From NCBI RefSeq assembly GCF_963678975.1, contig NC_089285.1:5938694-6002693 (forward strand): a stretch of 64,000 nt of DNA, given 5' to 3'. The notes under the pieces are model-generated. The model ran no database searches, was not told the origin of the DNA, and saw only the letters and a program-made list of their open reading frames with translations. Positions 17,301-64,000 of this stretch are shown here, piece after piece. Within the stretch, counting starts at the first letter, position 1, and each line of letters begins with the position of its first letter. The DNA comes from Dysidea avara (lineage: Eukaryota; Porifera; Demospongiae; Dictyoceratida; Dysideidae). A program made the translations under genes and the position numbers.

Positions 17301-18818
17301 TACCAGGAGGGAGCCAAAGGGATTAGTTGACACAATTACTGCATGGGTTGCTAGCAATGTCAGCATCAGTTCTTATTTCATAAACACTTTCTTATGAAGG
17401 TGCTATTATGCTGTAAGTGCATACTCGCAAGCTTCTAATCAAAGTTACATGTATCAGCTCTGGTGGATGCATTATAACAAACGTATGTGAGTTGTCATAA
17501 AGTAAACATTCATTACTTATGTGTAAAAACAGCTAGAGGCAGTCTAAAACCAGCCTGTATAGCTATAACCTGTGCTGAACTCTTGATCCAATTGCAAAAT
17601 TATTGGTTTTTAAAAATTAACATGCAATTAATTTAAATCAATTGAATCAGCATGCAACCAATCTTTTGTATGCATGTAGGTACTTGAAACTATTAGGATA
17701 TTCCAGTAATCATCTAAGGATACAATGCATGGATAATGTGACTATTCTACACACGTCATTATGCATGATCTGTTAAATTTTACATGTTATGTCTGAGCTA
17801 TTTGTGTAATTTTACTGCACATGTATTGAAATTATGTATAGGTGCTACTGTGGAGGTACTAGTAAATGACAGCAATGTTCTCTGCGGTCTATACTTTCAA
17901 GATAAAGAAATGAAACAAGTTTTTACAGCTTATCCAGAACTTTTGTGCATAGATGCTACCTATAAATTGGTAAACTTACGGTTTCCATTTTATATACTAC
18001 TTGCAGAGGATGGCAATGGTCAGAGTGAAGTAGTTGCTGCATTTTTGCTGCTTGAAGAGACTGAAGCAGCAATCTCCAGTGTCATGAATATTTTTAAGAA
18101 GCATAACCCCGCATGGAAATCAGTGCGGGTATTGATGTCTGATAAAGATTTCACAGAGAGAGAGGTTCTCTCTAAAAGCTTTCCATCAGCTCAACTTTTG
18201 ATTTGCCTTTACCACACATTTCGATCTTTTAGACGTGAAATCACCATGGAGAAAATGGGCATAACTTCAGGCCAAAGAAATTGTTGCCTAGATTTGCTAC
18301 AGAGTATGGCATATGCAACGAGCGAAGAAAAGTACCTTGAGCTTTACGCTACATTTAAATCAACTGTCCCATTACCTGTGTTAAATTATTTCAATGAGCA
18401 GTGGCATCAAATCCGACATCAGTGGGTAATGGGAATGAAGTACAGTAGTGGCAATTTCCTTAATAGTACCAACAACAGATTAGAATCACTAAATGCCAAG
18501 TTGAAATCAGTTATAGATCGTTATTCTACACTGGAGGAGTTTGTTGAGAAGTTTTTTTTAATATTAAGAGTACTGCGTTCTGAGCGTGACTACAAAGCAG
18601 GCACAACTGTCCAAAAAGTACCTGTTGCATTTCATTCTACAACTAACAAAGCATCTCTCAGTTACATGCAGTATTTGACACCACATGCATATGACTTTGT
18701 GGCAAAGCAGATGGCACTGAAAGATAAGGTCAGGTTTACGGAGGATGGGCCAAAACTGTATCACCATTCTACAGCTTTAGATAATTGTAACAAGCAATAC
18801 TTTGAGCTTGTGTTATAA
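14387..18818 (+). CDS. Ubiquitin-specific protease / FAR1 zinc / MULE-transposase chimera (about 950 aa, 12 exons)
   Basis: Exons inferred from GT-AG sites and phase: 14387-14519, 14589-14693, 14753-14881, 14963-15042, 15100-15188, 15527-15604, 15662-15743, 15799-16005, 16057-16688, 16742-16850, 16905-17137, 17842-18818. Residues 1-300 are a peptidase C19 domain: GLINKGNTCFLNCVLQCL (nucleophile Cys13), LQADAHELL, two CxxC zinc-ribbon pairs (CDSC, CERC), IVHIKRF, SGHYVAY (His258) and FDDTDV (Asp273/274). A Pro/Ser-rich linker (302-410) follows. Then comes a FAR1-like zinc domain (Cys494, Cys518, His542, His544) and a MULE transposase core like that of ZSWIM1/3 proteins: LLCIDATYKL (Asp663), LMSDKDF (Asp726), CLYH (Cys747/His750), NNRLESLNAKLK (Glu840). 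No C-terminal SWIM CxCxnCxH is seen before the stop. One extra A in the A-run at 17,046-17,049 breaks the frame in exon 11. If functional, it would remove ubiquitin at DNA-bound sites (inference). Separate adjacent genes remain possible. Confidence 0.7.
15265..15479. mobile_element. MITE with TGACCCGGTC ends (215 bp), in an intron of the protease chimera
   Basis: TGACCCGGTCAGACAAAAGG on the left mirrors TTTTTGTTAGACCGGGTCA on the right, with inner GACTTATAGTCTTTCC mirrored by GGCTAGAAAGTC. The ends resemble those of the larger TGTGACCCGGTCTG family at 45-50 kb. It lies wholly within the 15,189-15,526 intron. Confidence 0.7.
16231..16348 (+). repeat. 18-bp VNTR encoding PPDTGS repeats
   Basis: Six consecutive copies of CCACCTGACACAGGATCA, practically identical, in frame within exon 9 of the protease chimera. 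Diverged upstream units (SPPQSG, SPPQAE, SPPLAG) show an older array from which the perfect block grew. It forms the flexible linker between protease and DNA-binding parts. Confidence 0.9.
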
Positions 18819-24816: not shown

Positions 24817-27660
24817 TTAGCTATTGATTGCAAAATAATAGTTACGTAGCAGAGATTTGAATATGTCAGTGTTTTCCGCTTCAAAGATGTAGCGAGGTAG
24901 TACATTCCATTGCCTTGATGTTGATGGTATAAAGGAGTATTTGTAGGTGTCAGTGTTACAAAATGGTTCGATGAGTCTGAACATATGGCATGATCTGGTC
25001 TGTAGCTGGTACTGTGATGTCTGTAGATGAAACTCAGGTATGTATTCAGGTGGTAAATAGACATTTTGTTTAAGAATGTTGTATAGCACAGTTAAGGAGA
25101 GCTGTTCTCTTCGAGACTCTAGTGATTCCCACTTAAGTTCGTTAACCATCTGTGTTACACTAGCATGATAGGAGTATATACCTTTGACATATCGTGCAGC
25201 ATGCCTCTGAACGTTTTCTAAAACGATCTTGTCAGTTGTTAAATGAGGGTTCCAGACTGTAGTTGCATATTCAAGTTTAGGGCGTACTAGGCTAAGGTAG
25301 GCTCTCTCTCTAAGATGAATAGATGATGTCCTCAAGTTACGCTTTAGCAGACCAAGCATCTGATTTGCTTTGGAGGTGATAGATTGGATATGTAGGTGCC
25401 ACTTCAAATCACTCTGAATAATGATGCCTAAATATTTGTAATGTTCAACAGGTGAGAGGAAATGATTGTGTAGTCTGTAGGGAGTAATGATTTTATTTCT
25501 TCTAGGATGTAAAACAGTCATGGTAAAGCACTTTGATACATTTAGTCTCATCAGCCATCTCTGCTGCCATTCTTGTAACGCACATAAATCTTCTTGTAAC
25601 CTCTCAGCATCTTCAGGGGTACGGATAGCCCTATATATTATACAGTCATCAGCGAAAAGTTTAATAGAACTATGTAAAATGGATTCCGGTAGATCATTGA
25701 TATAGATGGAGAAAAGAGTAGGGCCAAGGACTGTGCCTTGAGGGACACCAGACAGTACTGGGCATCTGGGAGATGAAATACCATCTAGCACAACACACTG
25801 CGTTCGATGATTCAAAAATGAGGAGATCCAGTTTTTCAAATTTCCTCTAATGCCATACCAGTCTAATTTGTACAGTAGACGTTGGTGTGGTACTGTGTCG
25901 AAAGCCTTTGCAAAGTCAGTGAAGATAATATCTGTCTGTATTCCAGTATCATAGCAACAGGATAGATCATGTAATAGTGTGATAAGTAATGTTTCACAAG
26001 AACGAGAATGACGAAAGCCGTACTGATGATCACTTAGGATGTTGTTGGTTTCTAAATGTTTCATGATGTTTGAGTTTACAATTTGTTCAAATAATTTAGA
26101 GACAATGGAAGTTAGTGAAATTGGTCGATAATTGGAAGGTTGTTGTCGGTTACCCTGCTTAAAGATTGGTGTAATATTTGCAGATCGCCACTCATCAGGA
26201 ATGACTCCAGAGTCTGAGGAGCACTGAAACAATGTTCTTAAGAAGGGGGATATAACATCAGTTGTTTCTTTAAGTACTCTTCCATGTATTTGATCAGGTC
26301 CACAAGCTTTATTGGGGTTGATGTTAAGCAAGAGGTTGTAAACGCCTTCTACAGATGTGTTCACATCAGACATTGTTGGATGGGGGCTGGGACCCTTGTC
26401 TGGTAGTGAGGATTTTGGTTCCTTAGTGAACACAGACTGGAACTGTTGGTTTAGTACTTTAGCCTTATCCAAACTAGTTTCATAACTAGTGCCATCGCAT
26501 TTCAGCACAGGTATATTGGTATTTTCCTTCCTTAGAGCTTTGATGTAAGACCAAAACCTTTTCTGGTTTGAGTGAGGATGCCCTTCTGGAGAAATAAGGT
26601 TATTTGTATAAGACCAGTATGCAGATCTTAGTTCCTTCTGGACAAGATGTTTCAAAGATTTAAATTCAGCATAGTTGGCTTCTGAAAATGAATTTTTACA
26701 TAGTTTATACAGCCTATCCCGTTTTCTCATCAGTCTTTTGATGTTTTGATTCATCCATGGCAATCCCCGTCGTGCTTTTGTATGTTTATGCGGGATATAT
26801 TTGTCTACAACCTGGGCAATGGAGTGCTTAAATTTTGACCACAACTCTTCTACATTTGTCTCTTCAAAAGTGCCAACGTGGTCGGATGTGAGAAGGGTGT
26901 AAAGTTCCTCTTTGAGTGCATTCCAGTTTGCCCTGTTGTACATGTAGATGGATCGTGGGATTTGTCTGGTATGATCTACTTTAGCATTTACTTCAAAGCA
27001 AACGATATCATGGTCACTAATTCCAGCTATGCTTTGAATGTTGAGTATGGTGGAAGGTTTATTTGAAGATACTAAATCTAGCGTGTTGAAATCGCGTGTA
27101 GGAAAAGTGACAAGCTATTGAAGTCCATGATCTTGCAGGATTTCTAATGAATATTCATGTATTGCTCTGAACGATGAGCTATGTTTTACGAGGCTTTCTG
27201 ACCAGTCGATACCTGGTAGGTTGAAATCACCAGTTAATAGGATAGTGGGGTTGTTCGTAGTTTCATTTAATTGGTGTAATGATAAGTCTAGTTGGGTGAG
27301 AGAGTATTCGTCATTGATATGTGGTCTATAGTATGCTGCTATGTACAATGGGGAGCCAGAAATTATTAGTTTTGCCCATATGATCTCGCAGTCCGTGCTG
27401 AGAGAAGGTAGATCAACAGATGAGAGCTTATTAGAAACTGCTAGGAGCACTCCTCCATACCCATCAGGCCTGTCTTTGCGATAGATATTATAACCAAGTT
27501 CAGGTGGGATTATTTCACTATTCATTACATCTGGGGTTAACCACGTTTCTGTTCCAGCAAGAATGTCTGGTTTCTCTTTATCAATCAAAGCTATCAGATC
27601 AGGTTTTTTATTCCGGATTGATTGAAAATTTATAAGTAGAATTTTTAAATGATTAGAAGT
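24817..27660 (-). pseudogene. LINE ORF2: APE-type endonuclease and reverse transcriptase
   Basis: One frame throughout, starting without an ATG just after the ORF1 stop (LLINFQSIRNK), which suggests re-initiation. Endonuclease motifs: NFQSIRN, AGTETWL (Glu), LLTGDFNLPGIDW (Asp/Asn), ISDHDIV (His). RT motifs: NYRPISLTSIVSKLFE, DFAKAFDTVPHQ, SGVPQGTVLGPTLFSIYIND, LFADDCIIY (both catalytic Asp kept), LNVSKC, YKYLGI, and the C-terminal EYATTVWNP and SRQWNVLP. One in-frame TAG at 27,112-27,114, after QDHGLQ in the endonuclease, interrupts an otherwise open frame of about 945 codons. The stop is at 24,817. ORF2 protein nicks target DNA and copies the element RNA. Confidence 0.85.
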
Positions 27661-47981: not shown

Positions 47982-48368
47982 GCTATTTAGATTATATATG
48001 AACTTGCAAATATATAGTATCACTAATGTTTAGCACACTGTATCTATCACTGAAGAATATTTGAAACCACCCTATGCATGCAATAGCAACTCAGTATATT
48101 AGTGCATATCATACTATATAAGCATTGTTCTTATTATATTTTTTAAAGCTATTACTGTGAAACTTCTCTAATTCAATACCTGTATCTAATCCAGAATATC
48201 TCTGTAATCTGACACCATTTAATTTGCTGCACCAATGAAATAAGACTTTTTCTGTCTGATATTGCTTGATAATCCAACATCCCCACGCAGGTTGTTGAGC
48301 AAAATGTAACTGATATATAATAGGAAATTGATCCGTGTATTTTGGGGCCAATTATAAGTCTAATATTA

Positions 48369-48435
48369 CAAACGGTAAAGTAAATAGGCGCTTCGCGCGC
48401 GCAGCGCGCGAAGGGCCTATTTACTTTACCGTTTG
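48369..48435. repeat. GC-rich hairpin next to the palindrome
   Basis: CAAACGGTAAAGTAAATAGG followed by CGCTTCGCGCGC is mirrored by GCGCGCGAAG and CCTATTTACTTTACCGTTTG. The core is almost pure GC in an otherwise AT-rich region. Confidence 0.85.
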
Positions 48436-48811
48436 GTCACTAGGACATTAGGCAATTGGAATTCGCAAATTCCAATTGCATAAGTTTCAATGCTCAAAGT
48501 TTAAGAATTTATAAACACTGCTGACCTGGTTTGTTAACACGTCGAGGCGTTAATTTCCTCTGTTCCTGACATGGCAAATAATTAAAAAGTTTGCGTTCAT
48601 TCAGTACGCACGTGATGTAGTGGTACCAGGCTCTGTCCAGAACTCAAGTCTACCCCCAAGGAGTGGTCAGCACACAGAGAGAACTGCTCAAACGGACTAA
48701 AGGTAAGTAGGATAAGTAGATACACACGTTGAGATTATATTGTTTTGAAAGGCTAGTGTGGTACCAGACTACTTTCTCTAAATAAAATGCACCAGTTGGC
48801 GTGGCTATGGT

Positions 48812-48996
48812 AGTCTTGCGTAGACCAGACAGAATTTTTTCTTAGTGTGTGAGTGCGGAATAAGTGGCCAATCAGCACCCACCATAGAGCTGGTGAAACG
48901 TTACACAGAAATTCTATGGGAAGTGTACTAGATCACTTATTCCCCACCCACACACAAAAGAAGAAAGTCGGTCTGATCTTAGCTATATTATAGTGA
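48812..48996. mobile_element. Fold-back MITE, present in both arms
   Basis: GTAGACCAGACAG...GTGTGTGAGTGCGGAATAAG mirrors GGAATAAGTG-type sequence running to GTCGGTCTGATCTTAGC. The mirror copy is at about 63,690-63,860. It predates the arm duplication. Confidence 0.6.
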
Positions 48997-49968
48997 GTGA
49001 TGTTGAAATGGGCTCCTTCACCCCATTGGTATTCCCTACTTTTTGGGGGAATGGGAGGTGCGGCTAGTATTGCTTACAAGACGTTAGCATTTCTGCCTGC
49101 TGCTTAGAAAGACCAGTAGTGTAGTGTCCTGGATTAGATGCTCCACCAGTTTTTCTTTATTGTAACCCTGCCAGTCCAGTTACTATCGCAGCACTTGACC
49201 TTGCAATGTGTGAGGGTCAGGTGCATGCTTCCATCACATGTACTTCAATTGCTGTTTCTTGTTTATTTACTTGTTATATTTCAAAAAAAAAATCGCGCAA
49301 AAAAAATAAATCCAGTAGTATTGGCTACCAACTTTTTAAAAAATGTGGGTTGTGGAGTAGAAAGAGCAATAAATGCATTGTATACAAACTGGTTAAACCT
49401 CTACCTTATCCCATCACCATTGTATGGCATGCGTATGGGTTTAAGTCTCCACAAAGGACTCGACTGTATCGTTATTAGAAGTAGACAGCATGCCTATACT
49501 ACCTACTGTCAAGGAGGTGTCACTCTAATGTATCCTGTATTGTACGATCTTCATCCTTTAAACAAGGGATTTTTGGCATAGGACAGTACAAGCATCATTT
49601 CAAGTAGCACTTTTACATTCAATAATTGTAACGTGATCTTGGAAACCTACCTTTTTGGTTTATTTTCTGTTTAATAGCTTAAATGAGGTATTGGGTGCTT
49701 ATCTATCTTGTGTTAAAATTTTAGTTTAATATCCTGAGACGTGGCTGGTTTACTGTCCGGTACATTACAAACTAGTGCATTAAGGTTTGTGAGTGATTAA
49801 GGGTGACAAGTGGTGTTTACCAATAATTCCATACATGGTCTGATATAATCACTGAAGCTCCTAGGAAAAAGAAGCTTTGGGTGGGAAACTTTACAGCACG
49901 AAAGTTTAATAGTTGCTTTTATCCAAACAAATTGTTGAAATTTTCATTTAAGTTTTTGCTGTATGTAG

Positions 49969-52639
49969 AAGTCAAGGGTCACGACAAGTCCAATGGAAGT
50001 CACTGCAAGGTGATAGGAGCAACTACCATCGAGTCATCGACCATTTTATAGAGGTATGTAATAAAAAGTTTGCAGGTTCCCTACCAGAAAGTTATTTTCA
50101 TGGCCTCACCATGTAACATTAGGGTAAAACTCTAGGTATCATTTTAATCCTTGTTCCATCACAAGTAGAATAATGTAAATCGCATAGCCATAGAATGGAT
50201 GCTTCAAAAGTTACAGTGCTCTATGCAAGGCATGCGTATTTATTAAGTTTAAATCCAGTTTTCTTGATTATGCAGGTTTAAGGGTTAAGTGTTGCTAAAG
50301 GTAAAATTTTCACAAATACAGTGGAACCTGTCTATAATGGTCACCTTGGGACCAGATATATCTGGCCTTTATATGTGACCCGGTCTGCGAAAAGGGGTCT
50401 TATAGCCTTTTCAATTACATGTACTTGACTACCTGTAACTTGACTTGTAAATGTGGTATCACCTTGAAATTAGATCCCCTTATACCCCTAATATAGCACT
50501 ATCGCTTGGTGTAGTATGAAAGTGATACATTGAAAACATGAGGAGTTACGGTTAGTCAAACTTGACTATTTGGAAAGGCTATAAGACCCCTTTTCGCAGA
50601 CCGGGCCACATATACAGGTGGCTGTTATAGAGAAAACCTGCATAAGGTGGTCAGCAACATTTTAGTGGCTATGACCGTTATAAATGAGTAATTATTATAA
50701 AGAGGCTCGCGCCAACCGCAATGTAGTAATATTTTAGTACAGAAATGGCAAGGTGAGCCTGTTATGGATGTTGGTTATAGCTATTGAATACGATTAAGCA
50801 ATGAAGACTGATAGATTATATAGTATTCATTGAAAGGCAGGAAGTGTGATAATCGCGCATTAATTGAAATGATGCCATGGTGCCAGGAAATTTGCTTAAC
50901 AAGCCACCATAAAAGGTAGCGACCGCTATACGAAGAAGAAAGTTATGTATACAGTGATTCATGGGCAAATTCTTGGTTGGCCGTTATACGCGTTAGACAG
51001 GTGACCGCTTAATGCAGACCACAATGCATACATTTGTATTGGAAAATATTTGGGACCTCATGACCATGGCCGTTATACAAAGGTGACCGCTTAATCCAGG
51101 TGACCGTAACACAGGTTCCACTGTACTACCCAAATGTATTACTCTCTATGGGAGGTCTAAATATTTCAAGGATAAAATTTTGCTGATAACCCCCCCCCAA
51201 CACTGCACAATCAGCAAAAAAAAAAGTTTCCCCTTGAAATATTTAGGCAATACGGTATATGCAGTGTAATGCACTTGATTTATTTTTTTGTAGCCAGATG
51301 ATAGAGCACTGGTATCACATACCCAGGAAAAATTCTAATTGTAAGTTTTTTTAACTGTTAAATGAAAGTATGAATATACTCATTTGATAGTTGTTCTCCA
51401 CACTACATAATGCCCTTGACTTCTCTACTACTCTAGATCTTTTGTGTCACAAATTCTATTTGTATATTGTATCATTGTCAAGTTTCATGGTAGTGAATTA
51501 TTCTACCCTAAGATTGGCCATGCATTGTGACATATTTAGTGCATGCTTGTAAGTTTAAACTCAGTGTGCTCCTGTACAAGTCCGTCCCGTCCAGTTATTT
51601 AATGAGCTTTATCCACAATTGCATCATAGCACAAAAATGGCAATAAGAGTGGGGATTGTTTGTACAGATAGCCATTAGAAGGGATAACTTTTGAGATTTT
51701 CCTCGTTAAGAAAGTGAGAGAAATCTCTGGTAAGACTTGTTTGTTAACTATCTTTCTATGTAGAAGCATGCACAGTTGCTCTTCTCGAACACTCCAGATC
51801 TGGTTTTGAAAATAAAACCCGAGCTAGGTAAGTATCTAAAAGTGTGAAAATGCATTCCCCAACAGAATTTTCTCCTGCTGTCTTCATGGCAAACATCTCA
51901 AAAGCTTATCCCTTCCAATGGCTCTGTACAAAGTACCCCCACTTGTAATTGTGAATGAAACTCTTTTGGGACCTTTGAAATGTAGCCCACCTAACTGTGC
52001 TAGTGATGACGTGGTATAACAGGAAGAGTAAAATTAATGCTAGATGGCATGTTATGCACAGAAGTATCTTCTAAACTGTTTTATAGTTTAACTATCTTGT
52101 TTTTTCTCGCCAATCCTCTCAACAAAGCCTCAAAGCTGCTCTTCATTTTCATTCACGTTCGTAAGGGACATACCCACTTTAAACTCAAAGGGATAAGCTA
52201 TTCCTGGAAGTCTACAAGGCCTGTACCAATGTTTTTCAGTTATTAAATGCCTGTAAAACTTGAAGAGAAAGTAAATCAAAAAGTCTAAGGAGAGTCGTGT
52301 CACCCATGTTTCAGCCTGCCAGAAAGAAATCACAAAGTTTACTCGTAACTGTTTATTACAAACTTCATTTCGCTTTTCTTACGTACAAGCTGCTTTTATC
52401 ATTTAACGATTTTGCTCACGTTGGTGCGTATGGACCAACATAGATAAGTAGATAGGCATGCACACACACACGCACACACACACACACAGTGACCCACACA
52501 CACTGCACACACACACACGCACACACACACACACTGCACTACACACACACACACACACACTACACACACACATGCACACTACACACAGACCATCACACAC
52601 ACACACATGCACTTGCTACACACTACACAGAGACACACA

Positions 52640-52705
<66 letters not shown>

Positions 52706-53870
52706 TCACCACACACATACTACACACACACGTACACTGCACACACACACACTCTACACACATACTTTACACACAGACTTTCTACATACTACACAGAGAC
52801 ACACACGCGCGCACTACACTAAGGCATGCACACGAACACTACACACATACCACACACTACACACACACACACACACTACAAACATACCCTACACATACAT
52901 GCTACACACACACACGCACACACCACACACGCTATAGTAGTGTCATGTAGTTTAGCAACAGTAGACACATGTACACAGAGACACATGTAGTCATAATGTA
53001 ATGCTGCTACATGTGTCTCTGTGTATGTGATACATGGATACACATGTCTCTCACTACATGTTTCTCTGCGTAGTGTCATGTACTATAGTAGTGTCTGTAG
53101 TTTGCATACTGCAGTTTCACACCCATCCCAGAGTCTAATTTTTATTACATCTCTTTTTTACAGACATGCTACTGGACACCCAAGAATTACATGTTACTGC
53201 TGGTGAGTGTACTTATATGCTATACACATTTATTGGGTTTGACAAATCCGACATGAAGCAAGGCCATTTGGTCTTTAGCAGCTTTTTGGTCTCATTCGAA
53301 ACTCTGTGGAAGTGAAACAATATACAGTCACTGTAACGGATTGCATTTTAAAATGTATATCCTATAGTATGATAATACTGTATAGTTCTGCAACCTCTCT
53401 CCATGAGACTCGGACATTTCTCCTGTGGTTTATTGAAGCTCAAGCTCCTGAGTAGTGCACAGGCATCCCAGCTCTGGTTTACTGGGTGGCAAGTATTGTA
53501 GCTGTGCTTCACATGGCTCTGCTTTTTTTTTGCTTTGTTGATGTGCGTGTGTGCGTGTTGGATAATGTAGTCCAAAAGTATGTGTGTGCATGTGCTTTCT
53601 CCATTTTCCGTTTTGTTATATCACGTTCAACTCTAACTTTGTAGGTGTGCTATAAGAATCTGGAGATGTATGTGTTATAGAGAAGACACCAAGGAACAAG
53701 ATGGTCGATTCGAACCATGCTAGACACAGTGTAGTGTTTCTCAATGTAAGCTACATTCTGTTCTGTGTTGCTGCTTATTATCATGTGTACTGCAGGTCAT
53801 CAATACTCTTGAGAACTGTTTCCTAATACTGCTAAAGGATATTGTGACAAACTTGACTTTTCACGTGTAA
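49969..53870 (+). CDS. Unrecognised spliced gene candidate, arm 1 copy (3' exons)
   Basis: A chain of exons with GT-AG sites stays open and in phase: 49969-50053, an optional 18-nt exon 51294-51311, 51764-51827, 53164-53202, 53681-53745 and 53796-53870 (TAA). Encoded pieces, in order: QGSRQVQWKSLQGDRSNYHR, VIDHFIE, KHAQLLFSNTPDLVLKIKPE, MLLDTQELHVTA, MVDSNHARHSVVFLN and VINTLENCFLILLKDIV. No family is recognised. The start codon and first exon were not found; a donor after GGACTAAAG at 48,702 may end a leader exon. A longer reading of the 51,294 exon and another acceptor at 53,645 would hit stops, so some sites were chosen for openness. It points toward the palindrome centre. It could also be a non-coding transcript. 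Confidence 0.4.
50319..51123. mobile_element. pogo/Tigger-type MITE, arm 1 copy, split by another MITE
   Basis: CAGTGGAACCTGTCTATAAT to ACACAGGTTCCACTG with TA at each end. The 237-bp TGTGACC MITE lies inside at 50,374-50,610. The counterpart without it is at 61,321-61,886. Confidence 0.85.
50374..50610. mobile_element. TGTGACC-superfamily MITE (237 bp), only in arm 1
   Basis: TGTGACCCGGTCTGCGAAAA at the left, and CGCAGACCGGGCCACA at the right. The uninterrupted arm 2 site, GGCCTTTATATACAGG, proves that the duplicated target is exactly TA. Confidence 0.95.
52460..52930. repeat. CA-rich microsatellite, arm 1
   Basis: Long ACACAC tracts broken by TGCACT, GACAC and similar. Translated open frames here are Thr-His repeats and are not treated as coding. 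Confidence 0.95.
52973..53029. repeat. Small inverted repeat around CACAGAGACACATGTAG
   Basis: TACACAGAGACACATGTAG is mirrored by CTACATGTGTCTCTGTGTA around a loop of about 17 bp, at the inner edge of the CA microsatellite. The same hairpin is in arm 2 near 59,270-59,325. Confidence 0.75.
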
Positions 53871-54439
53871 TGTGTGCTATGAAATAGTGTTATATAGTTC
53901 ATTCAGAGCTTTGTTAAGAATTCCAATTTATACTTACGGTTTGTTACTGGGGTTTTGCATAATATGGAGCTACACCGTTCAAACTCTTGATAATGTACCC
54001 AATGATGGCACTACTACCTAAGATGACACTACTAACTACTGTACACCATGTAGGGTGATATAAGGGTGTTTGAGTGGGTGGGGCACCACTTTTGGCTGAA
54101 TTATGCAAAAAAAAAATTTCAAACTAAATCTTGATGAAACAAAAGGTAGAAACATGCGACACTTGGTGTTTATTTATAATGGCAATTCAGGTTAACTTTT
54201 TCCGTATTGAGTGCCTCTAAATAATCATTGTTGTGTTTAGCTTTGTTTATGTGTCTCTGTAGCTACCTTGGAAACATTCTTAAACTGTATTATGAAGGTG
54301 CTTATTGATCAGTGTATTAGGTCCCTATTACCTCTGAGATAGGATAACCTCCTTGTAACAGTAAAATATCAACAAACTTGCAATTGGTTGGTCCCAAAGT
54401 GTCTGTTAAATTAATATAATATTAATTATATAGAGGTTA

Positions 54440-55690
54440 TACTGTAATGTCACTATTGCTGCCAAACATGACACCACTAGTTACACACTGTAGAATGATA
54501 ATGTCACTATATAGTTAGCCAACATGACACTATTATAGTTGCACACTGTAGTGTGATAATGTCACTATAACAATAGTTACCTAACATGACACTACTAGCT
54601 ATGCACTGTTTGGTAATAATGTCACTACATGACACTACTACTTACACACTGTAGGGTGATAATGTCACTACAAGACACTACTAGTTACACACTGTAGCAT
54701 AACACTACTAGTTACACACTGTAGGGTGATGATGTCACTACAAGACACTACTAGTTACACACTGTAGGGTGATAATGTCACTACATGACAATACTAGTTA
54801 CACACTGTAGCATAACACTACTAGTTACACACTGTAGGGTGATGATGTCACTACCAGACACTACTAGTACCACACTGTAGGGTGATAATGTCACTACAAG
54901 ACACTACTAGTTACACACTGTAGGGTGATGATGTCACTACAAGACACTACTAGTTACACACTGTAGGGTGATAATGTCACTATATGACACTACTACCTAC
55001 ACACTGAAGGGTGATGATGTCACTACAAGACACTACTAGCTACACACTGTAGCATGACACTACTAGTTACACACTGTAGGGTGATAATGTAACTACAAGA
55101 CACTACTAGTTACACACTGTAGGATGATGATGTCACTACATGACACTACTAGTTACAAACTGTAGGGTGATGATGTCACTACAAGACACTACTAGCTACA
55201 CACTCTAGCATAACACTACTAGTTACACACTGTAGGGTGATGATGTCACTACATGACACTACTAGTTACACACTGTAGGTTGATGATGTCACTACAAGAC
55301 ACTCCTAGCTACACACTGTAGCATGACACTATTAGTTACACACTGTAGGGTGATGATGCCACTACATGACATTACTAGTTACACATTGTAGGGTGATGAT
55401 GCCACTACATGACACTACTAGTTACACACTGTAGGGTGATAGTGTCACTACATGACACTACTACTTACACACTGTATTGTAGGGTGATGATGTCACTACA
55501 AGACACTACTAGCTACACACTGTAGCATGACACTACTAGTTACACACTGTAGGGTGACGATGTCACTACATGACACTAATAGTTACACACTGTAGGATGA
55601 TGATGTCACTACAACACACTACTTGCTACACACTGTAGGGTGATGATGTCACTATATTGTTACGTACCCAACATATATGACACTAGTTAT
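54440..55690 (+). repeat. Satellite array, arm 1 (43/27-bp units)
   Basis: About 1.25 kb of head-to-tail monomers. The 43-bp form reads GTCACTACAAGACACTACTA followed by GTTACACACTGTAGGGTGATGAT. A 27-bp form lacks the GGTGATGATGTCACTACA part and instead has TAGCATAACACTACTAG. Monomers are mostly 90% or more alike. Confidence 0.95.
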
Positions 55691-57840
55691 TGTGGCATGT
55701 TGGGACATTACATCACCATACAGTGAGTATTAGCTGTATTGCCATGCTGTGAGATTATCACCCTACATTGTGTAGCTAGTAGTGTCATGTTGGGTAACTA
55801 TAGTATAGTGACATCGTCACTCTACAGTGTGTAACTAGTAGTGTTGTGTAGTTACATCATCACTCTACAGTTTGTAACTAGTAGTGTCATGTAGTGACAT
55901 TATCACTCTACTGTGTGTAACTAGTAGTGTCATGTAGTGACATCATCATACTACAGTGTGTAACTACTGAGTAGCGTCATGTAGTGACATTATCACCCTA
56001 CAGTGTGTAGCTAGTAGTGTCAAATGGTGACATCATCACCCTACAGTGTGTAACTAGTAGTCTCATGTAGTAACATCATCACCCTACAGTGTGTATAATA
56101 ACTAGTAGTGTCATGTTGGGTAACTATTGTTATAGTGACATCATCACCCTACAGTGTGTAGCTAGTAGTGCCATGTATTGACATCATCACTCTACAGCAT
56201 GTAGCTAGTAGTGCCATGTATTGACATCATCACTCTACAGCGTGTAGCTAGTAGTGTCATGTTGGGTAACTATAGTATAGTGAAATGATCACCCTACAGT
56301 GTGTAATTATTAGTGGCATGTAGTGACATCATCACCCTACAGTGTGTAACTAGTAGTGTCATGTAGTGACATCATCGCCCTACAGTGTGTAGCTAGTAGT
56401 GTCATGTTGGGTAACTATAGTATAGTGAAATGATCACCCTACAGTGTGTAATTATTAGTGGCATGTAGTGACATCATCACCCTACAGTTTGTAACTAGTA
56501 GTGTCATGAAGTGACATCATCACCCTACAGTGTGTAACTAGTAGTGTTATGCTACAGTGTGTAGCTAGTAGTGTCTTGTAGTGACATTATCATCCTACAG
56601 TGTGTAACTAGTAGTGTCATGCTACAGTGTGTAGCTAGTAGTGTCTTGTAGTGACATTATCACCCTACAGTGTGTAACTAGTAGTGTCATATATGTTACA
56701 GTGTGTAGCTAGTAGTGTCTTGTAGTGACATTATCACCCTACAGTGTGTAACTAGTAGTGTCATGCTACAGTGTGTAGCTAGTAGTGTCTTGTAGTGACA
56801 TTATCACCCTACAGTGTGGTACTAGTAGTGTCATGCTACCGTGTGTAGCTAGTAGTGACATCATCACCCTTCAGTGTGTAGGTAGTAGTGTCATGTAGTG
56901 ACATTATCACCCTACAGTGTGTAACTAGTAGTGTCTTGTAGTGACATCATCACCCTACAGTGTGTAACTAGTAGTGTCATGCTACAGTGTGTAGCTAGTA
57001 GTGTCATGTAGTGACATTATCACCCTACAGTGTGTAACTAGTAGTGTCTTGTAGTGACATCATCACCCTACAGTGTGTAACTAGTAGTGTCATGAAGTGA
57101 CATCATCACCCTACAGTGTGTAACTAGTAGTGTCATGCTACAGTGTGTAGCTAGTAGTGTCTTGTAGTGACATCATCACCCTACAGTGTGTAACTAGTAG
57201 TGTCATGCTACAGTGTGTAGCTAGTAGTGTCATGTAGTGACATTATCACCCTACAGTGTGTAACTAGTAGTGTCTTGTAGTGACATCATCACCCTACAGT
57301 GTGTAACTAGTAGTGTCATGAAGTGACATCATCACCCTACAGTGTGTAACTAGTAGTGTCATGCTACAGTGTGTAGCTAGTAGTGTCTTGTAGTGACATT
57401 ATCACCCTACAGTGTGGTACTAGTAGTGTCATGCTACAGTGTGTAGCTAGTAGTGACATCATCACCCTTCAGTGTGTAGGTAGTAGTGTCATGTAGTGAC
57501 ATTATCACCCTACAGTGTGTAACTAGTAGTGTCTTGTAGCGACATCATCACCCTACAGTGTGTAACTAGTAGTGTTATGCTACAGTGTGTAACTAGTAGT
57601 GTCTTGTAGTGACATTATCACCCTACAGTGTGTAAGTAGTAGTGTCATGTAGTGACATTATTACCAAACAGTGCATAGCTAGTAGTGTCATGTTAGGTAA
57701 CTATTGTTATAGTGACATTATCACACTACAGTGTGCAACTATAATAGTGTCATGTTGGCTAACTATATAGTGACATTATCATTCTACAGTGTGTAACTAG
57801 TGGTGTCATGTTTGGCAGCAATAGTGACATTACAGTATAA
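55691..57840 (-). repeat. Satellite array, arm 2, opposite orientation
   Basis: About 2.15 kb of the same monomers read as CATCACCCTACAGTGTGTAA then CTAGTAGTGTC. An about 600-bp block is duplicated: the distinctive GTGTGGTACTAGTAGTG variant at 56,815 returns at 57,413 with matching neighbours, while arm 1 has it once (near 54,867). The orientation switch is at about 55,690, in CCCAACATATATGACACTAG / GGCATGTTGGG. Confidence 0.95.
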
Positions 57841-59339
57841 CCTCTATATAATTAATATTATATTAATTTAACAGACACTTTGGGACCAACCAATTGCAAG
57901 TTTGTTGATATTTTACTGTTACAAGGAGGTTATCCTATCTCAGAGGTAATAGGGACCTAATACACTGATCAATAAGCACCTTCATAATACAGTTTAAGAA
58001 TGTTTCCAAGGTAGCTACAGAGACACATAAACAAAGCTAAACACAACAATGATTATTTAGAGGCACTCAATACGGAAAAAGTTAACCTGAATTGCCATTA
58101 TAAATAAACACCAAGTGTCGCATGTTTCTACCTTTTGTTTCATCAAGATTGAGTTTGCAATTTTTTTTTTGCATTATTCAGCCAAAAGTGGTGCCCCACC
58201 CACTCAAACACCCTTATATCACCCTACATGGTGTACAGTAGCTAGTAGTGTCATCTTAGGTAGTAGTGTCATCATTGGGTACATTATCAAGAGTTTGAAC
58301 GGTGTAGCTCCATATTATGCAAAACCCCAGTAACAAACCGTAAGTATAAATTGGAATTCTTAACAAAGCTCTGAATGAACTATACAACACTATTTCATAG
58401 CACACATTACACGTGAAAAGTCAAGTTTGTCACAATATCCTTTAGCAGTATTAGGAAACAGTTCTCAAGAGTATTGATGACCTGCAGTACACATGATAAT
58501 AAGCAGCAACACAGAACAGAATGTAGCTTACATTGAGAAACACTACACTGTGTCTAGCATGGTTCGAATCGACCATCTTGTTCCTTGGTGTCTTCTCTAT
58601 AACACATACATCTCCAGATTCTTATAGCACACCTACAAAGTTAGAGTTGAACGTGATATAACAAAACGGAAAATGGAGAAAGCACATGCACACACATACT
58701 TTTGGACTACATTATCCAACACGCACATACGCATATGCACACACTAACAAAGCAAAAAAAAAGAAGAGCCATGTGAAGCACAGATACAATGCTTGCCACC
58801 CAGTAAACCAGAGCTGGGATGCCTGTGCACTACTCAGGAGCTTGAGCTTCAATAAACCACAGGAGAACTGTCCAAGTCTCATGGAGAGAGGTTGCAGAAC
58901 TATACAGTATTATCATACTGTAGGATATACATTTTAAAATGCAATCCGTTACAGTGACTGTATATTGTTTCACTTCCACAGAGTTTTGAATGAGACCAAA
59001 AAGTTGCTAAAGACCAAATGGCCTTGCTTCATGTCGGATTTGTCAAACCCAATAAATGTGTATAGCATATAAGTACACTCACCAGCAGTAACATGTAATC
59101 CTTGGGTGCCCAGTAGCATGTCTGTAAAAAAGAGATGTAATGAAAATTAGACTCTGGGATGGGTGTGAAACTGCAGTATGCAAACTATAGACACTACTAT
59201 AGTACATGACACTACACAGAGAAACATGTAGTGAGAGACACGTGTATCCATGTATCACATACAGAGACACATGTAGCAGCATTACATTATGACTACATGT
59301 GTCTCTGTGTACATGTGTCTACTGTTGCTAAACTACATG

Positions 59340-59585
59340 ACACTACTATAGCGTGTGTGCATGTGTAGTGTGTGTGTGTGTGTGTAGCATGTATGTGTAG
59401 GGTATGTGTGTAGTGTGTGTGTGTGTAGTGTGTGGTATGTGTGTAGTGTTCGTGTGCATGCCTTAGTGTAGTGTGCGCACGTGTGTCTCTGTGTAGTATG
59501 TGGAAAGTCTGTGTGTAAGGTATGTGTGTAGAGTGTGTGTGTGTGTGTGTGCAGTGTACGTGTGTGTGTAGTATGTGTGTGGTGA

Positions 59586-59640
<55 letters not shown>

Positions 59641-59797
59641 CTGTATGTAGTGCAGTGTGTGTCTGTGTGTCTCTTTGTAGTGCGTAGCATGTGTGTGTAG
59701 TGTGTAGAGCGTGTGTGGTGTAGTGTGTATTTGTGTAGTACGTGTGTATGTGTGTATGCAGTGTGTGTGTTTCTGTGTGTAGTGCAGTATGTGTGAA

Positions 59798-59833
<36 letters not shown>

Positions 59834-60055
59834 CGTGCGTGCGTGTGTGTCTCTGTGTAGTGTGTAGCATGTGTATGTGTGTGTATTTGTGTAGTATGTG
59901 TGTATGTGTGTGTGTGGTGGTGTGTGTGTAGTGTGCATGTGTGTGTGTGTGTGTGTAGTGCAGTGTGTGTGTGTGTGCGTGTGTGTGTAGTGCAGTGTGT
60001 GTGTGTGCAGTGTGTGTGGGTCATTGTGTGCGTGCGTGTGCGTGTGTGTGTGCAT
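59340..60055. repeat. TG-rich microsatellite, arm 2
   Basis: Mirror of the arm 1 CA tract but about 245 bp longer. His-Thr or Cys-Val open frames across it are artefacts of the repeat. Confidence 0.95.
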
Positions 60056-61320
60056 GCCTATCTACTTATCTATGTTGGTCCATACGCACCTACGTGAGCA
60101 AAATCGTTAAATGATAAAAGCAGCTTGTACGTAAGAAAAGCGAAATGAAGTTTGTAATAAACAGTTACGAGTAAACTTTGTGATTTCTTTCTGGCAGGCT
60201 GAAACATGGGTGACACGACTCTCCTTAGACTTTTTGATTTACTTTCTCTTCAAGTTTTACAGGCATTTAATAACTGAAAAACATTGGTACAGGCCTTGTA
60301 GACTTCCAGGAATAGCTTATCCCTTTGAGTTGAAAGTGGGTATGTCCTTTACGAACGTGAATGAAAATGAAGAGCAGCTTTGAGGCTTTGTTGAGATGAT
60401 TGGTGAGAAAAAACATGATAGTTAAACTATAAAACAGTTTAGAAGATACTTCTGTGCATAACATGCCATCTAGCATTAATTTTACTCTTCCTGTTATACC
60501 ACGTCATCACTAGCACAGTTAGGTGGGCTACATTTCAAAGGTCCCAAAAGAGTTTCATTCACAATTACAAGTGGGGGTACTTTGTACAGAGCCATTGGAA
60601 GGGATAAGCTTTTGAGATGTTTGCCATGAAGACAGCAGGAGAAAATTCTGTTGGGGAATGCATTTTCACACTTTTAGATATTTACCTAGCTCTGGTTTTA
60701 TTTTCAAAACCAGATCTGGAGTGTTCGAGAAGAGCAACTGTGCATGCTTCTACATAGAAAGACAGTTAACAAACAAGTCTTACCAGAGATTTCTCTCACT
60801 TTCTTAACGAGGAAAATCTCAAAAGTTATCCCCTCTAATGGCTATCTGTACAAACAATCCCCACTCTTATTGCCATTTTTGTGCTATGATGTAATTGTGG
60901 ATAAAGCTCATTAAATAACTGGACGGGACGGACTTGTACAGGAGCACACTGAGTTTAAACTTACAAGCATGCACTAAATATGTCACAATGCATGGCCAAT
61001 CTTAGGGAAGAATAATTCACTACCATGAAACTTGACAATGATACAATATACAAATAGAATTTGTGACACAAAAGATCTAGAGTAGTAGAGAAGTCAAGGG
61101 CATTATGTAGTGTGGAGAACAACTATCAAATGAGTATATTCATACTTTCATTTAACAGTTAAAAAAACTTACACTTAGAATTTTTCTCGGGTATGTGATA
61201 CCAGTGCTCTATCATCTGGCTACAAAAATATAAATCAAGTGCATTACACTGCATATACCGTATAGCCTAAATATTTTGAGGGGAAACTTTTTTTTGCTGA
61301 TTGTGCAGTGTTGGGTAGTA

Positions 61321-61886
61321 CAGTGGAACCTTTGTTACGGTCACCTGGATTAAGCGGTCACCTTTGTATAACGGCCATGGTCACGAGGTCCCAAATAATT
61401 TCCAATACAAATGTATGCATTGTGGTCTGCATTAAGCGGTCACCTGTCTAACGCGTATAACGGCCAACCAAGAATTTGCCCATGAATCACTGTATACATA
61501 ACTTTCTTCTTCGTATAGCGGTCGCTACCTTTTATGGTGGCTTGTTAAGCAAATTGCCTGGCACCATGGCATCATTTCAATTAATGCGCAATTATCACAC
61601 TTCCTGCCTTTCAATGAATACTATATAATCTATCAGTCTTCATTGCTTAATCGTATTCAATAGCTATAACCAACATCCATAACAGGCTCACCTTGCCATT
61701 TCTGTACTAAAATATTACTACATTGCGGTTGGCGCGAACCTCTTTATAATAATTACTCATTTATAACGGTCATAGCCACTAAAATGTTGCTGACCACCTT
61801 ATGCAGGTTTTCTCTATAACAGCCACCTGTATATAAAGGCCAGATATATCTGGTCCCAAGGTGACCATTATAGACAGGTTTCACTG
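61321..61886. mobile_element. pogo/Tigger-type MITE, arm 2 copy
   Basis: CAGTGGAACCTTTGTTACGG to GACAGGTTTCACTG, flanked by TA. It is the mirror of 50,319-51,123 without the internal 237-bp MITE, so it shows the empty site. Confidence 0.85.
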
Positions 61887-62226
61887 TATTTGTGAAAATT
61901 TTACCTTTAGCAACACTTAACCCTTAAACCTGCATAATCAAGAAAACTGGATTTAAACTTAATAAATACGCATGCCTTGCATAGAGCGCTGTAACTTTTG
62001 AAGCATCCATTCTATGGCTATGCGATTTACATTATTCTACTTGTGATGGAACAAGGATTAAAATGATACCTAGAGTTTTACCCTAATGTTACATGGTGAG
62101 GCCATGAAAATAACTTTCTGGTAGGGAACATGCAAACTTTTTATTACATACCTCTATAAAATGGTCGATGACTCGATGGTAGTTGCTCCTATCACCTTGC
62201 AGTGACTTCCATTGGACTTGTCGTGA

Positions 62227-62694
62227 ATTTTTGTATCAGGCAATATATGATTTACATGAGTAATCCCACAATCAAAAGTAAGCATGTGGCAAGAATTATG
62301 AAACACGGAGACTTGACTTGTCGATATTCATCACTTCATAATAAGTAAGCCACTGTAGTCACAGTGCTCCTCCAAGTAGCCCAGTGGACTCACTTTTTAA
62401 ATCTATGTGTGTTTGTAGGCTGTAAGAATTAAGTTATCTCACCTAGTGTCACCATGCGAGTCCATATTGTGTAAACATGCATTTTCGAAAAGCAGATTTA
62501 AGGGTTAACCTTGAAAAGAAATATTTAGGCTATACCTAGTAGTAATACCCCCACCTTTGATGTTGGCCATGAAAAACAAATTTATAAGGTGTCTGTATAA
62601 GGAATGAGGCGTCTGCTCTAGTACATTGCCTGCCTTATGATCTCAGGGTGGTTGACGATCCACAAAAGTTGGATTTCTTACCAAGAGTATACCT
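62227..62694. other. 468-bp block present only in arm 2
   Basis: Arm 1 reads GGACTTGTCGTGACCCTTGAC in reverse sense without a break, whereas arm 2 has 468 bp between CGTGA and TGACCC. TGA is present at both ends, either a 3-bp target duplication or microhomology of a deletion in arm 1. The block has no inverted ends and includes an AAATATTTAGGCTATAC word shared with the MITE at 35,953. Confidence 0.85.
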
Positions 62695-63091
62695 TGACCC
62701 TTGACTTCTACATACAGCAAAAACTTAAATGAAAATTTCAATTTGTTTGGATAAAAGCAACTATTAAACTTTCGTGCTGTAAAGTTTCCCACCCAAAGCT
62801 TCTTTTTCCTAGGAGCTTCAGTGATTATATCAGACCATGTATGGAATTATTGGTAAACACCACTTGCCACCCTTAATCACTCACAAACCTTAATGCACTA
62901 GTTTGTAATGTACCGGACAGTAAACCAGCCACGTCTCAGGATATTAAACTAAAATTTTAACACAAGATAGATAAGCACCCAATACCTCATTTAAGCTATT
63001 AAACAGAAAATAAACCAAAAAGGTAGGTTTCCAAGATCACGTTACAATTATTGAATGTAAAAGTGCTACTTGAAATGATGCTTGTACTGTC

Positions 63092-63533
63092 CTATGCCAA
63101 AAATCCCTTGTTTAAAGGATGAAGATCGTACAATACAGGATACATTAGAGTGACACCTCCTTGACAGTAGGTAGTATAGGCATGCTGTCTACTTCTAATA
63201 ACGATACAGTCGAGTCCTTTGTGGAGACTTAAACCCATATGCATGCCATACAATGGTGATGGGATAAGGTAGAGGTTTAACCAGTTTGTATACAATGCAT
63301 TTATTGCTCTTTCTACTCCACAACCCACATTTTTAAAAAAGCTGGTAGCCAATACTACTGGATTTATTTTTTGTGCGATTTTTTTTTTGAAATATAACAA
63401 GTAAATAAACAAGAAACAGCAATTGAAGTACATGTGATGGAAGCATGCACCTGACCCTCACACATTGCAAGGTCAAGTGCTGCGATAGTAACTGGATTGG
63501 CAGGGTTACAGTAAAGAAAAACTGGTGGAGCAT
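63092..63533 (-). other. Open-frame region conserved in both arms (mirror of 49,138-49,581), coding doubtful
   Basis: The same reading (GVERAINALYTNWLNLYLIP, YPVLYDLHPLNKGFLA) is present in both arms, but an A/T run of different length puts the upstream part in different frames in each. No family match. Listed to record the conservation, not as a gene. Confidence 0.3.
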
Positions 63534-63933
63534 CTAATCCAGGACACTACACTACTGGTCTTTCTAAGCAGCAGGCAGAAATGCTAACGTCTTGTAAGCA
63601 ATACTAGCCGCACCTCCCATTCCCCCAAAAAGTAGGGAATACCAATGGGGTGAAGGAGCCCAATTCAACATCACTCAGTATAATATAGCTAAGATCAGAC
63701 CGACTTTCTTCTTTTGTGTGTGGGTGGGGAATAAGTGATCTAGTACACTTCCCATAGAATTTCTGTGTAACGTTTCACCAGCTCTATGGTGAGTGCTGAT
63801 TGGCCACTTATTCCGCACTCACACACTAAGAAACAATTCTGTCTGGTCTACGCAAGACTACCATAGCCATGCCAACTGGTGCATTTTATTTAGAGAAAGT
63901 AGTCTGGTACCACACTAGCCTTTCAAAACAATA

Positions 63934-64000
63934 TGTGACTGTCTCTGGGAAAACCGGTCTTATCGCCCATTTAAAAGTATCGAGAAACGTCGGTTTTAAA
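63934..64000. mobile_element. Left end of a TGTGACC-superfamily MITE, long form (cut by window end)
   Basis: TGTGACTGTCTCTGGGAAAA then CCGGTCTTAT and CGGTTTTAAA, colinear with the first 67 bp of the element at 36,540. TA precedes it (63,932-63,933). Confidence 0.85.

What the first reader, a model, noticed from the sequence alone, without database searches (positions are those of the whole stretch)
48738..63933. 15-kb head-to-head palindrome centred on an inverted satellite
Arms of about 7.0 and 8.2 kb are reverse complements at roughly 1-3% mismatch (by eye), joined at a satellite that itself flips orientation at about 55,690. Arm-specific insertions, deletions and repeat lengths show the arms have separate histories. 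It may be a true inverted duplication, or two haplotypes joined head to head in assembly, since this divergence is also typical of allelic variation in marine invertebrates. A single-molecule missed-adapter artefact is unlikely because the arms differ structurally.
Basis: partly seen in the sequence, partly recalled or inferred. Interest (0 to 1): 0.85.

Follow-up and report, generated by a model that had tools for sequence, protein, structure and literature searches.

The report
Giant palindromic foldback transposon, dispersed family
The head-to-head palindrome is real and is most likely one copy of a family of very long, gene-less jumping DNA elements whose two halves mirror each other and which are scattered through this genome.

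Summary
The palindrome is confirmed (48737-63934; arms 1-2% apart outside the satellite; satellite reverses once near 55.7 kb). In the window's 550.8-Mb eukaryotic assembly one sharp 29-base terminus (GATCCGTGTAWTTTGGGGCC...) was found 40 times, on contigs C1-C14, 20 per strand, reversed-pattern control 0. By position 28 of the 40 form 14 inverted pairs. Seven of 14 pairs have identical 6-bp flanks (target-site duplications), against 0 of 182 pairings between copies. The true element runs from window 48330 to 1055 bp past the window end (16,726 bp). Two further large copies read in full (16,534 and 18,148 bp) have the same anatomy and nearly the same central junction. Markers of each window arm recur in the corresponding arm of a copy on C3. 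No protein family was found in the window's left arm. Best reading: a non-autonomous foldback-type DNA transposon family with unusually long arms, moved by an unidentified transposase. Caveats: the window's own copy has no target-site duplication, no transposase was found, most copies are known only by their ends, and the genome-search machine answered nothing from then on.

The parts
48330..64000 (.). whole element as far as the window reaches (it ends at C14:6003748, equal to window coordinate 65055; 16,726 bp)
   Evidence: terminus seen in 26 of 30 ends fetched; right terminus from the pattern search
48330..54444 (+). left arm, outside the satellite; no protein family found
   Evidence: six-frame Pfam scan of 48330-54445 gives 0 families at E up to 0.1
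48330..48358 (+). terminal motif GATCCGTGTATTTTGGGGCCAATTATAAG
   Evidence: 40 genome matches, 20 per strand, control 0
50375..50610 (+). MITE-like insertion with ~31-bp inverted ends in the left arm; also in one arm of the C3 copy and in the C7 copy
52461..52930 (+). CA microsatellite of the left arm
54445..55654 (+). 43-bp/27-bp satellite, left orientation
55655..55805 (.). central junction where the satellite reverses (limits approximate); nearly identical in copies C8 and C13
55806..57832 (-). satellite, reversed orientation
57833..63933 (-). right arm, outside the satellite, up to the secondary insertion
59353..60052 (-). GT microsatellite of the right arm
62227..62694 (-). segment of the right arm that also matches copies C8, C12 and C13 but is missing from the left arm at 49978 (the C3 and C7 left-type arms lack it too)
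63934..64000 (.). start of the ~720-bp MITE-like insertion in the right arm (to about window coordinate 64654); the C3 right-type arm has an insert of the same length at the same site

Best explanation
This is one copy of a non-autonomous foldback-type DNA transposon family: a 16-18 kb element made almost wholly of two inverted arms of roughly 7-9 kb, with outer non-coding sequence, an inner satellite, and one fixed junction where the satellite reverses. Shown: a defined terminus, dispersal over 14 contigs, identical 6-bp flanks in half of the paired copies, unrelated flanking DNA, a shared centre in three large copies, no protein family in the window's left arm. Inferred: a transposase encoded elsewhere binds the ends and moves the whole palindrome; the satellite changes length by slippage or unequal exchange; occasional arm-to-arm conversion keeps the arms alike in some copies.
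For: Pattern search: 40 termini (39 with 0 mismatches, 1 with 1), 20 per strand, reversed-pattern control 0; by position 28 of 40 form 14 inverted pairs, 12 are unpaired. 6-bp flanks: 7 of 14 same-copy pairs identical, one more at 5 of 6, against 0 of 182 left-right pairings between different copies of that set (the 12 unpaired ends were not in that control). Flanks: of 26 compared (4 of the 30 fetched ends left out) only one pair shares a match, of 96 bp. Copies C8 (16,534 bp) and C13 (18,148 bp) are palindromes with one satellite flip and nearly the same junction. Tree of 30 ends: window left arm with one C3 arm and the C7 arm (100/100), window right arm with the other C3 arm (99/97); the left-arm insertion and deletion and the right-arm 720-bp insertion follow that grouping. 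Pfam: 0 families in six frames of the left arm.
Against: The window copy itself has no TSD (GAAATT left, TGAGAG right), nor have five other of the 14 pairs. No transposase or coding partner was found; the relaxed-terminus search meant to find one did not complete. Read in full: the window copy, C8, C13 and a 138-bp mini-copy; C12 has 10,000 N inside; the other nine pairs are known by their ends and spacing. The assembly has 200-N gaps beside copies C13 and C14:6013991 and inside the C2:2498595 copy, and C2:2498595 and the left end of C13 carry matching 6-bp flanks on different contigs, so some copies may be misjoined. Within-copy arms are not always closer than arms of different copies: window left/right 72 differences, window right/C8 right 71, of 4,859 columns.
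Confidence: 0.9

Rival explanations
1. Two haplotypes or two unrelated copies were joined head to head by the assembler at this locus.
For: The window copy lacks a TSD; 200-N gaps lie beside or inside other copies of the family, and the C2:2498595 and C13:3209582 ends have matching flanks across contigs, so the assembly does have trouble at such palindromes.
Against: No N in the window or in the 10 kb fetched to its right. Nearly the same junction occurs in C8 and C13. The window's two arms correspond to the two arms of the C3 copy, which has the perfect TSD TGTATA. No other of the 40 ends carries a flank that completes GAAATT or TGAGAG at 6 of 6.
Confidence: 0.05
2. A segmental inverted duplication that arose once and was then copied to other places as segmental duplications, not by transposition.
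For: Arms are long, without recognised genes and differ by 1.1-1.8%, and half of the paired copies show no perfect TSD.
Against: In 26 of 30 fetched ends the match stops at the same terminus, flanks are unrelated, and 7 of 14 pairs have identical 6-bp flanks.
Confidence: 0.03
3. A decayed Polinton/Maverick or another named 6-bp-TSD element that lost its genes and kept enlarged terminal repeats.
For: 6-bp TSDs, a size near 16-18 kb and inverted ends fit the recalled description of Polintons.
Against: Termini begin GATCC, not AG (recalled for Polinton) and not the TA..TA reported for IS3EU (PMC10045372, passages seen). No protein family in the window's left arm; the other copies were not scanned against Pfam.
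Confidence: 0.1

Closest known systems
Galileo copy 112 of Drosophila willistoni (P superfamily; PMC4168063, passages seen)
   Same: Only two very long inverted arms with tandem repeats and other inserted TEs, no transposase segment, identical TSDs
   Different: 9,021 bp with 4,246- and 4,680-bp arms, called the longest copy there; here 16.5-18.1 kb in the three large copies read. TSD here is 6 bp; termini were not compared with Galileo's by any search
Tetris, foldback element of Drosophila virilis (PMC4079207, passages seen, part of the abstract among them)
   Same: Non-autonomous, foldback form, internal tandem repeats in the inverted arms, middle domain without coding, transposase not found
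Tm1 Mutator/Foldback family of root-knot nematodes (PMC3169594, passages seen)
   Same: Composite inverted repeats of variable length, and MITE-like relatives
   Different: 9-bp TSDs and an identified MULE transposase source
IS3EU (PMC10045372, passages seen)
   Same: TSDs usually 6 bp
   Different: TA..TA termini, not met here; foldback form not mentioned in the passages seen

Membership tests
Foldback-type (structural class) DNA transposon | Long inverted terminal repeats that make up most of the element | tested here: met
   Self-alignments of the window copy, C8 and C13
Foldback-type (structural class) DNA transposon | Tandem repeats inside the inverted arms | tested here: met
   43/27-bp satellite in both arms of the three copies, one flip each
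Foldback-type (structural class) DNA transposon | Dispersed copies with target-site duplications | tested here: met
   7 of 14 pairs at 6 of 6 bases, 0 of 182 cross pairings; the window copy itself has none
Mutator superfamily (home of many foldbacks) | TSD of about 8-11 bp (range recalled; 9 bp in Tm1; 8-10 bp in Tetris) | tested here: not met
   6 bp
P superfamily/Galileo | P-type transposase in an autonomous copy; 7-8 bp TSD (recalled) | tested here: inconclusive
   TSD is 6 bp; no transposase found, the search for a coding partner did not complete
Polinton/Maverick | 6-bp TSD (recalled) | tested here: met
Polinton/Maverick | Termini 5'-AG; polymerase, integrase and capsid genes (recalled) | tested here: not met
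   Termini GATCC/GATGC; no Pfam family in the window's left arm
IS3EU | TA..TA termini with 6-bp TSD | tested here: not met
   Termini GA..TC

The most novel reading that the evidence does not exclude
The family is moved by a transposase of a superfamily not yet described (GATCC...GGATC ends, 6-bp duplications) that can excise and reinsert a near-complete 16-18 kb palindrome. Arm-to-arm conversion keeps the halves alike in some copies, while in others (window and C3) the same unlike pair of arms is shared between loci.
Probability: 0.25. Interest if true: 0.65.

Novelty: new member of a known kind. Interest (0 to 1): 0.45.

Why it matters
Long palindromes are usually held to be unstable (recalled), yet here three read in full, of 16.5-18.1 kb, sit on three contigs with arms 1-2% apart outside the satellite, and ends of the family lie on 14 contigs. 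The family offers many copies for asking how long inverted repeats persist, how arms are homogenised, and whether a centre of diverged satellite protects them. It also warns that a palindrome in a genome assembly can be a transposon and not a haplotype join, and that several such copies lie at scaffold gaps.

Tried and rejected
The first look for TSDs at 48738/63933 gave nothing because these are not the termini. In some searches and 18 loci on the minus strand were read in the wrong orientation; corrected. Rfam and tRNA scans of the window found nothing. The terminus pattern gave 0 exact matches in viral contigs and in genome contigs; these collections are of viruses and of bacteria and archaea, so this says little. 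The C8 right arm (L010) in the 1.2-kb comparison is not usable: it shows 18.7% because a C8-only insertion lies in that stretch; the whole-arm alignment was used instead. Searches for a coding partner (relaxed terminus), for the inner arm 51200-52440, and the fetch of full C3 and C5 copies did not complete. Literature: eight searches. No title or abstract opening in these listings names a palindromic element of this size, but three listings showed only part of the hits (15 of 20; 8 of 44; 8 of 12, and that search was about superfamilies), and subscription papers are mostly not held; FARE (PMC1461375) is not held. So I do not claim that nothing like it is in print.
Full report
WHAT IS THERE. 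The window has an inverted repeat whose outer parts match at 98.6-99.2%. From the true termini to the satellite its arms differ at 100 of 5,799 aligned bases (1.72%) with 22 gap runs. The centre is a satellite of 43-bp and 27-bp units that runs one way from 54445 to 55654 and the other way to 57832. The orientation changes once: 28 forward unit cores, then 49 reverse; one further forward match lies outside the satellite. The junction, 55640-55830, folds as single-stranded DNA into a hairpin (z = -4.8 against 200 shuffles) with its axis near 55,730.

TRUE ENDS. The genome of the window is held: 550.8 Mb in 108 contigs; the window is C14:5938694-6002693. A search with an arm piece gave inverted pairs about 10-12 kb apart on many contigs. 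A search with 200 bases from 48738 gave 39 long matches and 2 fragments; loci came for 30 of them. In the window's right arm a ~720-bp MITE-like insertion with inverted ends interrupts the match at 63933; the arm resumes beyond it and ends at C14:6003748. The element is 16,726 bp long.

FAMILY. The 29-base terminus, up to 3 mismatches allowed, was found 40 times, 20 on each strand, on each of contigs C1 to C14; the reversed-pattern control gave 0. By position 28 of the 40 form 14 inverted pairs: 13 of 10.7 to 22.5 kb, and one of 138 bp at C5:31303905, two ends with a short loop. Twelve have no partner in the list. Seven of the 14 pairs have identical 6-bp flanks: C2:7350722 TATCAG, C3 TGTATA, C5:31303905 TGCATG, C6:12362822 CACCAA, C8 TGACAT, C10 TAGGAC, C12 TTTCAT. 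One (C5:25803694) matches at 5 of 6. Six do not match: C1:50037300, C2:39755496, C4, C13, C14:6013991 and the window copy. Among 182 left-right pairings between different copies of these 14 none match. Comparing all 40 ends with each other gave three further 6-of-6 matches: C2:2498595 with C13:3209582 on different contigs, and two second candidates for right ends, C10:1752559 and C12:9645160, so the partner on C10 and C12 is not certain. Twenty-six flanks compared with each other share only one 96-bp match; four of the 30 ends were left out and a few flanks are partly N, C12:9637648 mostly so. These are insertions at unrelated sites.

SAME ANATOMY. Besides the window copy I read C8 (16,534 bp), C13 (18,148 bp) and the 138-bp mini-copy in full. 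C8 and C13 are palindromes like the window copy with one satellite flip each. About 250 bases across the flip are nearly identical in the three. The C12 copy has outer arms of 2,669 bp with one difference, but 10,000 N inside. A head-to-head join made by an assembler at one locus would hardly recur with nearly the same junction on three contigs.

HISTORY OF THE ARMS. In a tree of 30 ends (about 1.2 kb each) the window left arm groups with an arm of C3 and the C7 arm (100/100), and the window right arm with the other arm of C3 (99/97). Structural markers agree: the MITE-like insertion at 50375-50610 and the ~470-bp deletion of the left arm are in the C3 and C7 arms, and an insert of 720 bp at the same site, with the same 60 bases next to the arm, is in the other C3 arm. 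Differences: window left/right 12 of 1,237; window left/C3 left 7 of 1,241; window right/C3 right 8 of 1,237; crosswise 14 and 17. So the arms had diverged before these two copies separated, and the unlike pair was copied together. Of nine copies with both ends in the comparison, both arms are nearest to each other in four by distance and tree (C5, C12, C1:50037300, and C14:6013991 with weaker support), in C10 by the tree only, not in three (window, C3, C13), and C8 cannot be judged there. Over 4,859 columns common to seven arms, arms within a copy differ at 72 (window), 75 (C8) and 37 (C13) sites and arms of different copies at 70-114, apart from the C2:2498595 arm, which differs from the C13 arms at 6 and 35. 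Arm-to-arm conversion is thus likely in some copies and not evident in others; this is inference.

NO GENE SEEN. The window's left arm in six frames has no Pfam family at E up to 0.1; C8 and C13 were only listed for open frames. Of 22 frames of 110 codons or more in the three copies, 16 are CA-repeat readings; the rest are five readings of 117-147 codons near the ends (the 147-codon one has no Pfam family) and one in a C8-only insertion. The element is therefore probably moved by something encoded elsewhere. That was not found: the genome search machine answered nothing from then on.

HOW IT WORKS, AND HOW SURE. Shown: ends, 6-bp flanks in half the pairs, dispersal, shared centre, arm markers shared between loci. 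Inferred: trans-mobilisation by a transposase; growth of the arms by taking inner DNA into the inverted repeat, as reported for Galileo (PMC4168063, passages seen); satellite length change by slippage.

COMPARISON. By structure it is a foldback element. It does not fit the TSD length of Mutator foldbacks (8-10 bp in Tetris, PMC4079207; 9 bp in Tm1, PMC3169594), nor the TA..TA ends of IS3EU (PMC10045372), nor the AG ends of Polintons (recalled). The largest comparable copy I saw in print is Galileo 112, 9,021 bp; the three large copies read here are nearly twice as long. The host was not identified; reverse transcriptases and a ZSWIM/MULE-like frame in the window point to a eukaryote.

WEAK POINTS. 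The window's own copy has no TSD. Some other copies sit at scaffold gaps or hold N. Nine of the 14 pairs are known only by their ends and spacing.

Noticed in passing
G000 C2:2498595 and C13:3209582: These two ends, on different contigs, have matching 6-bp flanks (GTTATG and its complement) and nearly the same outer arm (2 of 1,239 differences); a 200-N gap lies inside the C2 copy, so a scaffold misjoin or an old translocation is possible.
   Followed up: partly
G000 C5:31303905-31304042 (L053): A 138-bp mini-element: both ends of the family with a short loop and a perfect 6-bp duplication TGCATG.
   Followed up: partly
G000 C14:6013991-6030722: A second pair of ends of the family only 10.2 kb to the right of the window's copy, with a 200-N gap about 400 bases outside its left end.
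   Followed up: partly
G000 C12:9621850-9637648: Outer arms of 2,669 bp with one difference, and 10,000 N between; cannot tell a withheld stretch from an assembly gap. An end with the same flank lies 7.5 kb further at C12:9645160.
   Followed up: no
window 16057-18818 +: Frames resembling ZSWIM1/3 with a MULE/RNase-H-like domain; an 18/36/54-bp minisatellite at 16060-16349 lies in the first of them.
   Followed up: no
window 24817-27114 - and 256-753 +: Frames with reverse transcriptase domains, probably non-LTR retrotransposons.
   Followed up: no
window about 50316-51000: This part of the arm has 15 further genome matches at 93-94% that share a boundary near 50316, as if an older repeat family were embedded in the arm.
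   Followed up: no
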